DNA from: Acanthamoeba lenticulata
Lineage: Eukaryota; Discosea; Longamoebia; Acanthamoebidae
Direction of reading: 5' to 3'
Length of the DNA: 64,000 nucleotides
Assembly: GCA_002179805.1 (NCBI GenBank)
Contig: NAVB01000146.1
Location: 1-64,000, forward strand
Shown: positions 59,013-64,000 of the stretch, in pieces
Position numbering within the stretch: the stretch's first letter is position 1
How the letters are laid out: every line of letters starts with the position of its first letter
Program-made: the position numbers and the translations under genes
The notes under the pieces: generated by a model
Told to the model about the DNA's origin: nothing
Databases searched by the model: none
What the model saw: the letters and a program-made list of their open reading frames with translations, nothing else

Positions 59013-62000
59013 TCACGTCAAAGAGCCGGCGGCGTCGCGGCTTCGAGTGCCTGTTCGGAGGCCAGGAAGCGACAAACGAAGCAAACCGCTGCCGGTGCTG
59101 TGGCGCTGCTTGTGCTGCTCGGCCGCAGCGTTCTCGCGCCGCCGCCGCTCGCGCTCCTCCTCGTCGAGCCGACGCTTCTCGCGGTCTAGGTCGAGGCCCT
59201 TCAGGAACTGGAAGGCCACGTGCAGGTGCGTCAGCAGGTAGCCCTCCACCTCGAACCGCAGGTGCTGGCTCATGAACTCCTCCAGGAAGTTGAGCTCCGA
59301 CGACAGGTTGGACCAGCCCGCGTGCACCAGCACAAAGGCCAGCACCGGCAGCAGCTCGTCGGCGCTCATGCCCTCGCCCTCCCTGCTCATACCCCCCCCC
59401 CCCAAAGCGGCGTGATGAGACCCACAAGCCCCTCGGGCCTCGATCGCAAGGGGGCGGGCGTACGCGTGCGAGTCGGGGAGCAGGCCGTGCTCGATGGCCT
59501 TGGAGGCCAGGTAGATGTGGTGCAGCTTGTCGGCAGGCGTGTTCAGCGTGGGCACCTTGGCCATCAGGTCGATGGCGCCCTGGAACGGCAGCACCGCCTC
59601 CCTGGTCAAAGAAAAGCGCGCGGGTGAGTTTCTCGCCGAAAAGAGGCCCCAGAGACAAGAAGGAAAAGGTACGGAGACGAGCCCAGGAATCGGCTCCGTC
59701 GCCACGAAGCGCTTTCCTGCTTCGGTCCGTCCTGGTCGTTCTCGAGCGTCTTGTCGGCGCTGTTGGCAGCGGCGGCCGCAGCCTCCTCCTCACGGCGCTT
59801 GCGTTCGAGCTCGATCATGTCCGCCACTTGCCGGGCGTCCAGATTCAGGTCTGCGAGATTGCAGCACAAAGATGATTGAAGAGACATGAATAAATTGCTT
59901 AGAAATAGAATAAAATACAATAATAAATAAATTGAATAAAATAATAAATAAATAGGGGAAGGTTTTTACCGAGCAAGGCGAGCTGCTGCGCGAGCGGCAT
60001 CCTACGCAGGTCGATAAGCTTGGCCGCGACATCGCCATCCTCCTTCTCGTTCTATGTTGATACAGCCGTTGTGTGAGTGTCCAGCGCTAATAGTCATCAA
60101 GCTGCGGGCAAGATGATGACGACGACGGCGATGGTGATGGTGATGATGAGCATGTGGTACCTTGATCTCGTACATGGCGAAGAGGGTGGTGTAGATCAGC
60201 GGGAACACGACCGACTCGACGGCCACCGTGCACCAATGGGCCGTCTCTTCCTTGCGCGCCTCGTCTTCGGCCACGCTGGGCCGCCCGCTGGCGCGCCGGA
60301 CCTGGTGCGTCGTGGCCTCGATGAACGAGTGCGTGTCGTCCAGCGCGTCGTCGAAGAACTTGTAGCAGTCCTCGGCCGGCCGGTAGTTGCGGTTGAGCAG
60401 CTTGGCAAATGACCCCACCACCCCGCTCAGCGGGTGCACCGACGCTCTGTTGTGTCCGAAAAGACGTCAGAGGAGGCCATGGAGAACACCATCAACAACA
60501 AAGAAAGGGAGGCGCACGGGAGGATCATGCGGCGGGCGCAGTCGGCGACGGCTTGCTGGGTGGGCTCTGGCTCGTCCAGTGCCCGCCGCAGGTTGTCCTC
60601 CAGCTGCTTGGCCGCCTGCATTTGGGGAGAGGACGTCGTCAGAACCAAACCCATGAGGTTGGCCCACTATGCGAGCAAGGGGAGAGACACGAACCAGGTT
60701 CTTGGGATCGCGCACACACTTGAGGTTGATAAAGTAGTTCCATCGCTCGATGTTGAGTTCGCTGTTGTGCGCGTTTGTGTTTGTGCCTGAATGAGCGCGG
60801 GAATGGGCCGAATGGAGGGAAGTGAAGAAGGGATGAAGGACGCACTCGACGTCGCGAGGGACCGACTTCATCCACGTGGCGTTGGTCACCGCCAGCTTGT
60901 CCAGGCTGCCCTCGGTGTGTGTATGTGTGTTTGTGTTAGCGATCGAGCACTGCACCACGGCATCGATGCATGGGGCGAGGGAGGAAGACATGCGTACTTG
61001 TCGCCGTCGAGGGCCTTGGCGTCGAGCACGTAGCGATCCGGGAGCAGCACAAAGCCTCGGCCGTGCAGCCGGTCTGCAGCCATGGCTCTGCGCGTGAGCG
61101 GGCAAAACTCCCCGAAGCGAAAGTCAACAGTTCCCACGCACCGTTGAGCCACTCGCCATTGTAGATCGTGCCGTCGCCCGTACGGAGGAAGCCGCTGCCG
61201 GCGCGCTGGCCGGCGTTGAAGGTGCCGTAGAAGCGGTCGGACGTCTTGGCATACGTATAGATCCCGTACCCGTGCGGCTGCTCGTCCCGGACCACCGCGA
61301 CCGCCACGGTTCATCAGCCCACGGGACAGGCTCGCGCAAGGGGAGAGGACGGGCTCACGTACGGCTTTGCCGGACCAGTCGCCCACGTATTTGTCGCCGT
61401 TGACGTAGAGGACCGAGCAGGGGAGGAGGAGCACGCCGTTGTCCCACGTCGCAAAGAACACGTCCCCGTTGTCAAAGTAGAGGTAGCCTTCGTCGTGCCT
61501 CTTGTCGTTGACCCACGAGCCGATGAACTTGTCGTAGCCCGAGCCCTTGGTGAAGTGCTGTGTGCCCTGCCCCTCTGCGCCAGAGGTCCCGGGACGGGTC
61601 AGTTCACGTCGCTGGCCGACGTCACCATCGCACTGGCGGGGGAGAGAGTACCGCGCTTGCCGTTGCGCCAGCAGCCCTCGTAGCGGCCGCCCTTGCGGTT
61701 GTAGTATGTCCCGAAGCCGTCACGCAGGCCGTTGGCCCACTCGCCCTCGTACTTCTCCCCGTTCTTCTCGTAGGTGCCCATCCCGTGGAACTGGTCCGCT
61801 CCCCGCCCCGCCCAAACACCTCACGTTGTCAGCCCGGGCCGGCGCTGGTAAGGTGGAGACGCGGTGGCGACGCACCTTGCCCCACATCCACTGGCCCTCG
61901 TAGATGGCGCCGGTGATGAACGCGTACTTAAACGAGCGCCGGTTGTTATCTGGTCAGAAGGTAAGCCATTGAGCAAGTGGGCACGACGCGAGAGTCAATG

Positions 62001-64000
62001 GGAATAGGCTTGAAAGAGAGAAGAGGCGCCGGACCGAGCTCGGGCTGCCCGAGCAGCTTGGCGATCTTGGAGTGGACGTTGTTGACAAAGGCCAGGCGCT
62101 CGTGTTCGCTGTTGGCCCGCACGAGGAAGGTGCGCTCGACGCCGATGACGGCAAACGTGCGCGCCGGGTCTTCAACATCGGGCGGGTCCGACTGGACCCA
62201 CACCGTGTGCAGCGGCATCTCGTACTCGAGCGCCATCGCCGAGCAGACGCACAGGAGGTCGTTGTAGAGCAACAGCGAGTAGGGCGGGCTCTTGTTCGGT
62301 TCGCCTGAGAGCCGGAAAGGGCAACGGGATCAGTGTTGTGCGCTTGGCGATGGGAGGACGACGAGAGCGGAGGAGGAGGAGGAGGTACCAAGTATGGTGA
62401 CGTAGGTCTGGCTGACGTAGATGCGCGAGGGCTGCATGAGCTGCTTGAGGCCGCGGATCTTGGCCACGAGCCGCATGTACTCGTGTTGGCTCTGATCGTC
62501 GGTCAGCTTCTTCACAATCTGTGGATAACGACGACGTTAGGACTGACGTGAGACGAGGCAAGGGAAAGGTCCTGATGAGAGAAAGCGCACCTGACGCAGG
62601 TGAATGGAGACCGAGTCCAGGTTCTCGTAGTCCGGGTGGTCCTTGGGCGTGTACGCGAGTATCTCCTGCAACATGAAAGTAAATTAGAATAATTAGAATA
62701 ATAATTAAAAGCATTTTTTAAAAACGAGTAGATCAATTGTCGTACGCGGAAGTAGGAGAGGTATTTGTGGATGCGGATGGTGGGCTCGAGCAGCAGCGAC
62801 GACAGCGTGAACTCCTTCTTCTCGTCCTCGCGCTTCCGGTAGATGTCGGCCTCCCGCGCGCACTCCTGAGTGTCCCCACAGGATGCGTCAGCATCGCAGG
62901 CTCAGGTCGAGCTGGAGTCCCACTGGAGAGGGGCTCGTACCGACAGGAAATTGAGGAGGGAGCGGTTGTTGGAGGCGTTGTTGAGGATGGTGATCGCATT
63001 GGCCGTCCCCGCGCAGTACCGCGTGTAGAGCGGAAGCAGCTCTTTCTGCTCCCAGCCAATGATTTTTGGATTGAAATGAAAAATTAAACATAAAAGGAAA
63101 CATAAGAAAAAGAATCATAAGAAAGCGTACCATGTTGAGGAAGATATCGCCAAGGAGCTGGCAGGGCCAAGAAGCCATGCACGCGTCCAACTTGTTGAGC
63201 AGGTTGCGCTGAAACTCGAGCAGCTGATCCACATTCCCGAAGATCTTGTCCACCTCCTCCATGCTGATGATGACGGTGGTGACGACGGAGCCGCGTCAGT
63301 GCCACGAGATCACCCACCTCATTATCACTACTGCGAGGCGCGCACCTGATCAGCTTCTCGGAGAAGAGGAAGGACTTGCTCTCTTGGATGCGTTGGCAGA
63401 GCGGCCGATAGTAGATCTGCACGATGATGTTGAGGATGCGCACATAGCTCCGCTCCGACCGCAGCAAGTCCCACACGACCCGGTCCCGATTGCTCCGATG
63501 GGCATCTGAGGACGAGCCCCGCATCAGCCCAGCTCATGCCCATGTATGGACGCCACGCTGAGCGAGGCGACGAGAGCAGACGCACCGAGGAGCATCATCG
63601 TGGTGTTTTCGCCGCAGGCGACGAGCCGCACCCGGCGCAGTTTCTTGGCGATCATTACTCTACGCCCCTCGCGTTCCTCCCGCACGCGCCGGTTTGTATT
63701 GGCCCCGGGCCCGCCATGGCTGTCGCTGCTGCTCTCCTGCTCGCTCGAGCTCTCCTGTTGTTGCACACGGTCATCGGGCTGACCCGGCTCGGTGGGCTTG
63801 GAGTCCTTGGCGTGGAGGAAGGACAGGTCGGACGTGTGCTCGCGCTCGAGGGAGCCCTTGGGCGAGCTGGCTTTGGTCGCCGCGTTGGCCCCGGACCCGG
63901 TGCTGATGCCCTGCTTGGTGTCGTCCAGCGAGAACTTACGCGAGCGGTCAAAAGGCGGCGTGAGCGACTGCATGGCGCGCGTTGCGGACGCCTCCGTGTG
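59013..64000 (-). CDS. Alsin-like protein: (RCC1-like) - DH - PH - MORN - VPS9, N-terminus cut by window edge
   Basis: Predicted exchange factor acting on Rho-type and Rab5-type GTPases, as animal Alsin (ALS2). The frame is open at 64000, so the start is outside. The first visible part is Ser-rich, ending RVRLVACGENTTMMLL, which looks like an RCC1-type repeat end (about 63640-63590). DH domain: RVVWDLLRSERSYVRILNII (about 63480), FGNVDQLLEFQRNLLNKLDA, FTLSSLLLEPTIRIHKYLSY (about 62800) and KDHPDYENLDSVSI. PH follows (about 62430-62040), including RTFAVIGVERTFLVRANSEH. MORN repeats (about 61900-61150) include EKYEGEWANGLRDGFGTYYN and GDKYVGDWSGK. A helical linker leads to VPS9 (about 59560-59190): DKLHHIYLASKAIEHGLL, MSADELLPVLAFVLVHAGWS, VEGYLLTHLHVAFQFL. 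It ends in a charged coil and a stop at 59013. Many introns. Confidence 0.9.

What the first reader, a model, noticed from the sequence alone, without database searches (positions are those of the whole stretch)
59013..64000. Alsin/ALS2-type architecture in an amoeba
The sequence shows DH, PH, MORN and VPS9 domains in that order in one chain, with an RCC1-like motif (VACGENTTMMLL) just upstream at the cut edge. This is the domain order of animal Alsin, whose loss causes motor neuron disease. An amoebozoan copy would mean this dual Rho/Rab5 exchange factor is older than animals, or arose twice.
Basis: partly seen in the sequence, partly recalled or inferred. Interest (0 to 1): 0.75.

Follow-up and report, generated by a model that had tools for sequence, protein, structure and literature searches.

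The report
Full-length Alsin-type gene in an amoeba
An amoeba genome carries an intact gene for a protein built like Alsin, the human protein whose loss causes motor neuron disease, which suggests that this switch-controlling protein was assembled before animals existed and probably first served in cell eating and drinking.

Summary
The window ends inside a minus-strand gene running from C132:67276 to 59013: 34 exons, 33 GT-AG introns, one chain of 1867 aa. The predicted RCC1 blades lie upstream of 64000. Order: leader, seven RCC1 blades (by eye), DH, PH-like, eight MORN units, helical bundle, VPS9. A second haplotype keeps every splice site, dN/dS 0.08. P0001 (77% identical) and P0003 share the order; a Balamuthia model shares it up to mid-VPS9. 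Homology to animal Alsin is collinear: the RCC1-DH spacing is 34 residues in 7 of 7 proteins, and the MORN-VPS9 bundle is reciprocally recognised. DH and VPS9 trees neither reject nor show one origin (p-AU 0.30, 0.22), and animal DH alone scores nearer to DH-PH-MORN proteins that lack RCC1 and VPS9. That Alsin predates animals is already published for its VPS9 and MORN parts (PMC6032885); I found no report of the complete chain outside animals. The amoebal-type DH is an ordinary RhoGEF domain (111-116 bits, 4 of 4), while animal Alsin DH falls under Pfam's cut-off (14-23 bits, 3 of 3).

The parts
59013..64000 (-). Part of the Alsin-type gene inside the window: exons 15-34 and most of exon 14. 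The gene goes on to C132:67276 (exons 1-14) outside the window. Stop codon at 59013-59015.
   Evidence: Hand splicing with GT-AG sites, correction of exon 8 against P0001, haplotype copy
63608..64000 (-). End of the RCC1-like propeller: second part of blade 7 (VRLVACGENTTMMLL) and its low-complexity insert; the propeller goes on to C132:65956
   Evidence: Pfam WD40_RLD 231 bits, RCC1 167.8 bits with 5 stretches; coordinates
62507..63586 (-). DH (RhoGEF) domain, exons 14-20
   Evidence: Pfam RhoGEF 113 bits, cut-off 27.6; fold of the P0001 counterpart matches DH-PH exchange factors, P-Rex1 and Tiam1 first
61945..62461 (-). PH-like domain, mostly exon 21
   Evidence: PH_alsin 27.5 bits; best exon for this Pfam family in the 48.5 Mb assembly, E 5.9e-7, under cut-off
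61045..61926 (-). Eight MORN units, exons 22-26
   Evidence: Pfam MORN 75.6 bits with 4 stretches; eight units by a loose motif, spaced 22-26 residues
59675..61044 (-). Helical bundle between MORN and VPS9, with the HPL(G) motif (HPLS in this copy)
   Evidence: Reciprocal HMM and profile match to animal Alsin; model of the P0003 counterpart overlays bundle plus VPS9 of AtVps9a and Rabex-5
59175..59674 (-). VPS9 domain (Rab5-family exchange), exons 32-34
   Evidence: Pfam VPS9 61.3 bits, cut-off 27. SADELLP and EGYLLTHL are identical in P0001, whose match to Rabex-5 aligns their Asp, Tyr and Thr; catalytic roles recalled.

Best explanation
The gene encodes an amoebal member of the Alsin family: a large multidomain exchange factor that shares its RCC1-DH-PH-MORN-VPS9 chain with animal Alsin by descent. 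Shown: the gene, its single reading frame, its domain order and its selective constraint. Inferred: the DH-PH part loads a Rac-type GTPase with GTP at the cell edge to drive actin ruffles or cups; the MORN units and the helical bundle hold it on membrane and in oligomers; the VPS9 part then loads a Rab5-type GTPase so that the new macropinosome or phagosome becomes an early endosome. The RCC1 propeller, and a coiled-coil-looking N-terminal leader, probably restrain or place the protein. One chain would thus couple 'make the cup' to 'mature the vesicle', whereas mammalian Alsin is described mainly as recruited by active Rac1.
Against: No activity, expression or localisation was measured. Trees do not resolve one origin. 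The animal DH HMM gives its best non-self scores to DH-PH-MORN proteins (P0064 13.2, P0028 11.8 bits), with no amoebal Alsin among the 14 hits printed; with DH-PH together P0003 gets 26.2 against 35.5 for P0064; the amoebal DH HMM finds P0028 (94 bits) first. In the profile test two of 137 DH controls (8e-5, 1e-4) beat the amoebal match (3.1e-4), and PH controls nearly equal it (2.8e-6 against 7.3e-7); the controls are single sequences, the amoebal side a profile; RLD and MORN had no controls. The bundle test set held no other VPS9 proteins; the short paralogue on C50 gets 14.6-15.1 bits from the amoebal bundle HMM, as much as one animal Alsin, and 2.5 from the animal one. P0003 VPS9 (26.1) scores under Rabex-5 and under that paralogue with the animal HMM, and sea-star VPS9 alone prefers the paralogue (27.4) to the window gene (19.3). 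A sea-star C-terminal query of the genome returned C50 and C1002 and not the window gene, but only two candidates were scored. Pfam's animal-trained DH_Alsin, PH_alsin and Alsin_RLD do not reach their cut-offs. Fold matches to Cdc42 and RhoA exchange factors are within a few powers of ten of the Rac ones, so the GTPase is not told; that model is weak (mean pLDDT 58, PH part under 45).
Confidence: 0.7

Rival explanations
1. Convergent assembly: an amoebal DH-PH-MORN exchange factor, a kind seen in amoebae and early animals, gained a VPS9 tail and an RCC1 head independently of animals.
For: DH-PH-MORN proteins without RCC1 or VPS9 exist in Acanthamoeba, Balamuthia, Hydra, Sycon and others and are nearer in DH score to each Alsin set than the sets are to each other. 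This genome also has a separate MORN-bundle-VPS9 gene from which a tail could have come. Trees do not exclude it.
Against: Same order of the parts, same 34-residue RCC1-DH spacing in 7 of 7, a long insert inside the last RCC1 blade in both groups (by eye), a similar number of MORN units (8 here; 7-10 in the other six by the same loose motif), reciprocal match of the bundle.
Confidence: 0.2
2. Same Alsin by descent, but the protein works as described in mammals: Rac binds DH-PH only as a recruiting signal and the sole enzyme activity is VPS9 on Rab5.
For: In COS-7 and HeLa cells Rac1 GEF activity was judged not relevant although DH-PH binds Rac1 (PMC8773251, passages).
Against: The amoebal-type DH scores like an ordinary RhoGEF (111.8-116 bits in 4 of 4), while animal Alsin DH scores 23.2, 22.7 and 13.9, under the 27.6 cut-off, in 3 of 3.
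Confidence: 0.25
3. Horizontal transfer of an animal Alsin gene into amoebae.
For: Only four sequences of the amoebal type were found, and P0001 and P0003 have no named host.
Against: 23-25% identity to animal Alsin over 30-47% of the query, 33 introns, about 47% identity between this gene and Balamuthia's, and an animal DH far more derived than the amoebal one.
Confidence: 0.03
4. Artefact: neighbouring genes or chimeric contigs spliced together by hand.
For: Exons were chosen by eye; one splice (exon 8) needed correction against P0001 and the exon 4/5 join remains uncertain.
Against: Two haplotype contigs agree at all splice sites; P0001 and P0003 span RCC1 to VPS9 in one chain.
Confidence: 0.02

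Closest known systems
Animal Alsin (ALS2)
   Same: RCC1 propeller, DH, PH, about eight MORN units, bundle, VPS9 in the same order; RCC1-DH spacing equal; long insert in the last blade; HPL(G) motif in the bundle
   Different: Amoebal DH is an ordinary RhoGEF domain; leader of about 360 aa before the propeller; the other insert lies in blade 6 by my count, against blade 5 reported for human Alsin (PMC8773251); tail of about 53 aa after VPS9; 23-25% identity
MORN-VPS9 'Alsin' of trypanosomatids and some amoebozoans (PMC6032885, passages)
   Same: MORN units followed by VPS9
   Different: The passages seen name no RCC1 or DH-PH in them; sequences not fetched here. This genome has a short MORN-bundle-VPS9 gene as well, on C50
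DH-PH-MORN proteins (for example P0038 of Acanthamoeba castellanii Neff, P0028 of Balamuthia, P0035 of Hydra)
   Same: DH, PH-like and MORN in that order; nearest relatives of the DH by score
   Different: No RCC1 head and no VPS9 tail by Pfam
RGBARG of Dictyostelium (PMC7416115, passages)
   Same: Amoebal multidomain RCC1-RhoGEF protein that shapes macropinocytic cups
   Different: BAR and RasGAP domains instead of MORN and VPS9; a functional parallel, homology not tested
Rabex-5 / AtVps9a
   Same: Helical bundle plus VPS9 fold
   Different: No RCC1, DH-PH or MORN (recalled); their VPS9 rows group with two other genes of this genome (97/96)

Membership tests
Alsin family (RCC1-DH-PH-MORN-VPS9 exchange factors) | N-terminal RCC1 propeller running straight into DH | tested here: met
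   spacing 34 residues in 7 of 7 proteins. Seven blades counted by eye.
Alsin family (RCC1-DH-PH-MORN-VPS9 exchange factors) | Central DH domain | tested here: met
   RhoGEF 113 bits, cut-off 27.6; DH-PH fold of P0001
Alsin family (RCC1-DH-PH-MORN-VPS9 exchange factors) | PH domain after DH | tested here: inconclusive
   PH_alsin 27.5 bits under the cut-off of 40, though best in the genome at E 5.9e-7; DH-PH-MORN proteins hit the same model (6 of 7); model of this part has low confidence
Alsin family (RCC1-DH-PH-MORN-VPS9 exchange factors) | About eight MORN units between PH and VPS9 | tested here: met
   Eight by a loose motif, spacing 22-26; 7-10 in the other six proteins; eight in human Alsin by PMC8773251
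Alsin family (RCC1-DH-PH-MORN-VPS9 exchange factors) | C-terminal helical bundle plus VPS9 with the conserved Asp | tested here: met
Alsin family (RCC1-DH-PH-MORN-VPS9 exchange factors) | Groups with animal Alsin in a tree | tested here: inconclusive
   DH-PH p-AU 0.297, VPS9 p-AU 0.217; neither rejects nor shows it
Alsin family (RCC1-DH-PH-MORN-VPS9 exchange factors) | Exchange on Rac and Rab5, self-oligomers, endosome and ruffle location | not testable with these tools
   Needs protein and cells
Animal-type Alsin as drawn by Pfam (PF25582, PF25383, PF25384) | Scores over the curated cut-offs of DH_Alsin and PH_alsin | tested here: not met
   DH_Alsin not hit by the spliced protein and at most 16.4 bits elsewhere in the genome; PH_alsin 27.5 of 40. 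Animals pass both in 3 of 3. Alsin_RLD: 30.7 of 100 here, and animals also fail it in 3 of 3. So it is not filed as animal-type Alsin.
DH-PH-MORN proteins | DH-PH-MORN without RCC1 head and VPS9 tail | tested here: not met
   Head and tail are present here; 7 such proteins scanned have neither

The most novel reading that the evidence does not exclude
The complete Alsin, RCC1 head and working Rac-exchange DH included, already existed in the common ancestor of amoebae and animals as a macropinocytosis or phagocytosis coordinator, and the animal line later let its DH decay into a Rac-sensing part. The mammalian 'Rac effector' mode would then be a derived remnant of an ancestral dual exchange factor, and the conflict over whether Alsin is a Rac GEF would have an evolutionary cause.
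Probability: 0.42. Interest if true: 0.7.

Novelty: new member of a known kind. Interest (0 to 1): 0.52.

Why it matters
If one origin holds, the full disease-linked domain chain is not an animal invention, against the published view that extra domains of human Vps9 proteins came later, with MORN as Alsin's exception (PMC6032885). A single-celled amoeba that lives by engulfment then becomes a system for asking what Alsin is for, and its ordinary-looking DH allows a direct test of whether the ancestral protein was a true Rac and Rab5 dual exchange factor.

Tried and rejected
Third protein search with the P0001 C-terminus found only itself, not even P0003, so that tool's reach is short and absence from it means little. 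A whole sea-star Alsin against the genome returned 42 matches, 37 in its MORN part and 5 in RCC1, none in the window gene. The DH-PH tree with P0026 as outgroup joined long branches and held one badly cut row (P0085); it was rebuilt without P0026 and with P0085 recut. The VPS9 tree has 114 columns and several half-length rows, too little to decide; adding the C50 paralogue to the Alsin clade gives p-AU 0.114. PH_alsin was first taken as Alsin-specific; one search shows DH-PH-MORN proteins hitting it at 15.8-27 bits (6 of 7), so I dropped it as a marker. The bundle is not Alsin-only by ancestry, since Rabex-5 and AtVps9a share the fold; only its sequence similarity leans to Alsin. The first gene model had a 40-base intron after exon 8; corrected against P0001 to 82 bases, 1867 instead of 1881 aa. 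Pfam, HMM, tree and residue numbers from calls before 78 are on the 1881-aa model (subtract 14 beyond about residue 542); splice, mismatch and dN/dS figures were recounted on the corrected model (the first count gave 58 of 5646 and 90 of 2571). The reading of DH decay in animals rests on 3 animal sequences.
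Full report
What is there. The window is bases 1-64000 of contig C132 (106173 bases) in a 48.5 Mb assembly of 1825 contigs. I fetched C132 to base 80000 and spliced the minus-strand gene by hand: start 67276, stop 59013, 34 exons, 33 introns. After comparison with P0001, exon 8 was shortened by 42 bases. Corrected model: 1867 aa; donors 33 GT; acceptors 31 CAG and 2 TAG; introns 58-119 bases; 30 of 33 introns would break the frame if kept. Exons 15-34 and most of exon 14 lie in the window. The join of exons 4 and 5 (intron C132:65837-65894) stays uncertain.

The gene is real. Contig C874 (16267 bases) is a second haplotype of C132:54933-71238 at 97.3%. All 33 donors and 33 acceptors are kept; coding mismatches 58 of 5604 aligned bases with one in-frame 3-base gap; introns 90 of 2613 with 87 gap columns; 46 synonymous and 12 non-synonymous codons; dN 0.0028, dS 0.0351. 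This is purifying selection on the chain.

Relatives. The first protein search gave 26 hits, from the 7997 candidates that shared most words. P0001 (77% over 1693 aligned residues; source unnamed) and P0003 (43%, unnamed JGI contig) have the full order; P0002 of Balamuthia mandrillaris (47%, deposited as 'Rho guanine nucleotide exchange factor 3, variant 3') has it up to the first half of VPS9, where its model stops. Animal Alsins P0011, P0013 and P0014 come at 23-25% identity over 30-47% of the query. The other hits carry MORN, apart from P0026. One search gave 189 hits, 120 listed; 20 of the listed have RhoGEF and MORN but no RCC1 or VPS9 among their Pfam domains, in Acanthamoeba, Balamuthia, Hydra, Sycon, Stygamoeba, Planoprotostelium and unnamed sources.

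Is it Alsin by descent? For: profile matches along the chain; bundle (5.9e-10 against a best control of 3e-4, n=137) and VPS9 (2.5e-11 against 0.036, n=137) stand out; reciprocal bundle HMM hits are Alsins first; equal spacing of 34 residues from the last RCC1 strand to the DH 'ER' in 7 of 7 proteins, anchors picked by hand; an insert inside the last blade in both groups (by eye). The animal VPS9 HMM ranks the window gene (33.1; exon alone 29.7) first among the 7 distinct VPS9 loci of this genome that I tested (next 26.9); of the 10 Pfam VPS9 matches in the genome one is the haplotype copy and two were not fetched. PH_alsin has its genome-wide best exon in this gene.

Against: for DH alone the animal HMM prefers DH-PH-MORN proteins and no amoebal Alsin is among its 14 printed hits; the amoebal DH HMM also finds P0028 first; two of 137 DH controls beat the amoebal profile match, and PH controls nearly equal it. 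Controls were single sequences while the amoebal side was a profile of up to four, and RLD and MORN had none. The bundle set held no other VPS9 proteins; the C50 paralogue gets 14.6-15.1 bits from the amoebal bundle HMM. With the animal VPS9 HMM Rabex-5 (29.3, a 91-residue stretch) lies close to the window gene and above P0003 (26.1); sea-star VPS9 alone prefers C50 (27.4 against 19.3). The DH-PH tree is unresolved (27 rows; holding Alsin together costs 0.77 log units, p-AU 0.297). The VPS9 tree is weak (14 rows, 114 columns; p-AU 0.217 for amoebal plus animal Alsin, 0.196 for amoebal Alsin with the Rabex5/Vps9 rows). I put one origin at a little under 0.8, on collinearity and not on trees.

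The DH difference. RhoGEF scores are 113.0, 113.7, 111.8 and 116.0 bits in the window protein, P0001, P0002 and P0003, and 23.2, 22.7 and 13.9 in P0011, P0013 and P0014, cut-off 27.6. Animal Alsin DH has its own Pfam model (DH_Alsin: 223, 69 and 222 bits), which does not hit the amoebal protein. The review PMC8773251 (passages) tells of Rac1 GEF activity in early work and of later tests that found it not relevant in COS-7 and HeLa cells. An ordinary DH in amoebae makes an ancestral active exchange factor plausible; this is inference.

How it most likely works. Rac loading by DH-PH at cups, membrane holding and oligomers by MORN and bundle, Rab5 loading by VPS9 as the vesicle forms, control by the RCC1 head. 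Support from animals: Alsin in Rac-linked macropinocytosis and endosome fusion (PMC8773251; PMC6032885). An amoebal parallel is RGBARG of Dictyostelium, an RCC1-RhoGEF protein at macropinocytic cups (PMC7416115, passages); there removal of RCC1 had no effect and it was not clear whether its GEF domain is active, so the parallel is loose.

Known or new. Herman et al. 2018 (PMC6032885; passages only, supplements not seen) infer Alsin in the last eukaryotic common ancestor, find it in Trichosphaerium, Mayorella and possibly Sexangularia, and write that extra domains of the human proteins came later, MORN being the Alsin exception; the main text has no occurrence of 'RCC1' or 'Acanthamoeba'. Searches of the open library for alsin with Acanthamoeba (11 papers), choanoflagellate and Amoebozoa, for ALS2 with VPS9, MORN, RCC1 and evolution, and for RhoGEF and MORN with Acanthamoeba or with VPS9 and Dictyostelium listed no report of the full chain outside animals. 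Of these I read passages of PMC6032885, PMC8773251, PMC8934682 (a MORN-family tree with an alsin-like group is mentioned), PMC6397043 and PMC2837644; the rest I judged from title and start of abstract. Most subscription journals are not held. So: a new, complete member of a known family, with a less derived DH, and of moderate interest.

Noticed in passing
L024:9100-10000 and L025:1-2288 (G000:C50:161100-164288, + strand): A second, short Alsin-like gene in the same genome: MORN units, a bundle with an HPL motif, VPS9 and a long C-terminal tail, with no RCC1, DH or PH hit (E 0.01) in the 18 kb examined. It looks like the MORN-VPS9 form described for trypanosomatids.
   Followed up: partly
L028 (G000:C235:1-8000, - strand): Counterpart of the A. 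castellanii Neff RhoGEF-MORN protein P0038, pieces 33-86% identical: the best hint that the genome is an Acanthamoeba, probably not strain Neff.
   Followed up: partly
L011/L012 (C874) against the window; C204/C588, C10/C1605, C58/C1334: C132/C874 are haplotypes (aligned); other contig pairs with nearly equal scores suggest that the assembly keeps both haplotypes, so gene counts from it are inflated. 37 of 42 matches of a sea-star Alsin to this genome are MORN stretches.
   Followed up: partly
P0058, P0064, P0028, P0085, P0035: A DH-PH-MORN family with a weak Alsin-like PH domain, present in amoebae and in early animals (Hydra, Sycon); possibly the stock from which Alsin's middle came.
   Followed up: partly
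P0002 (Balamuthia mandrillaris): The deposited gene model ends in the first half of VPS9 and is named as a Rho exchange factor; probably a truncated model of the same gene.
   Followed up: no
P0026: A protein with DH-PH first, then RCC1 repeats and FYVE: similar parts in another order.
   Followed up: no
window:57120-58379 (- strand): Neighbouring open frames with the motif [13 protein letters not shown] look like a glutathione-reductase-type enzyme (motif recalled, no search run).
   Followed up: no
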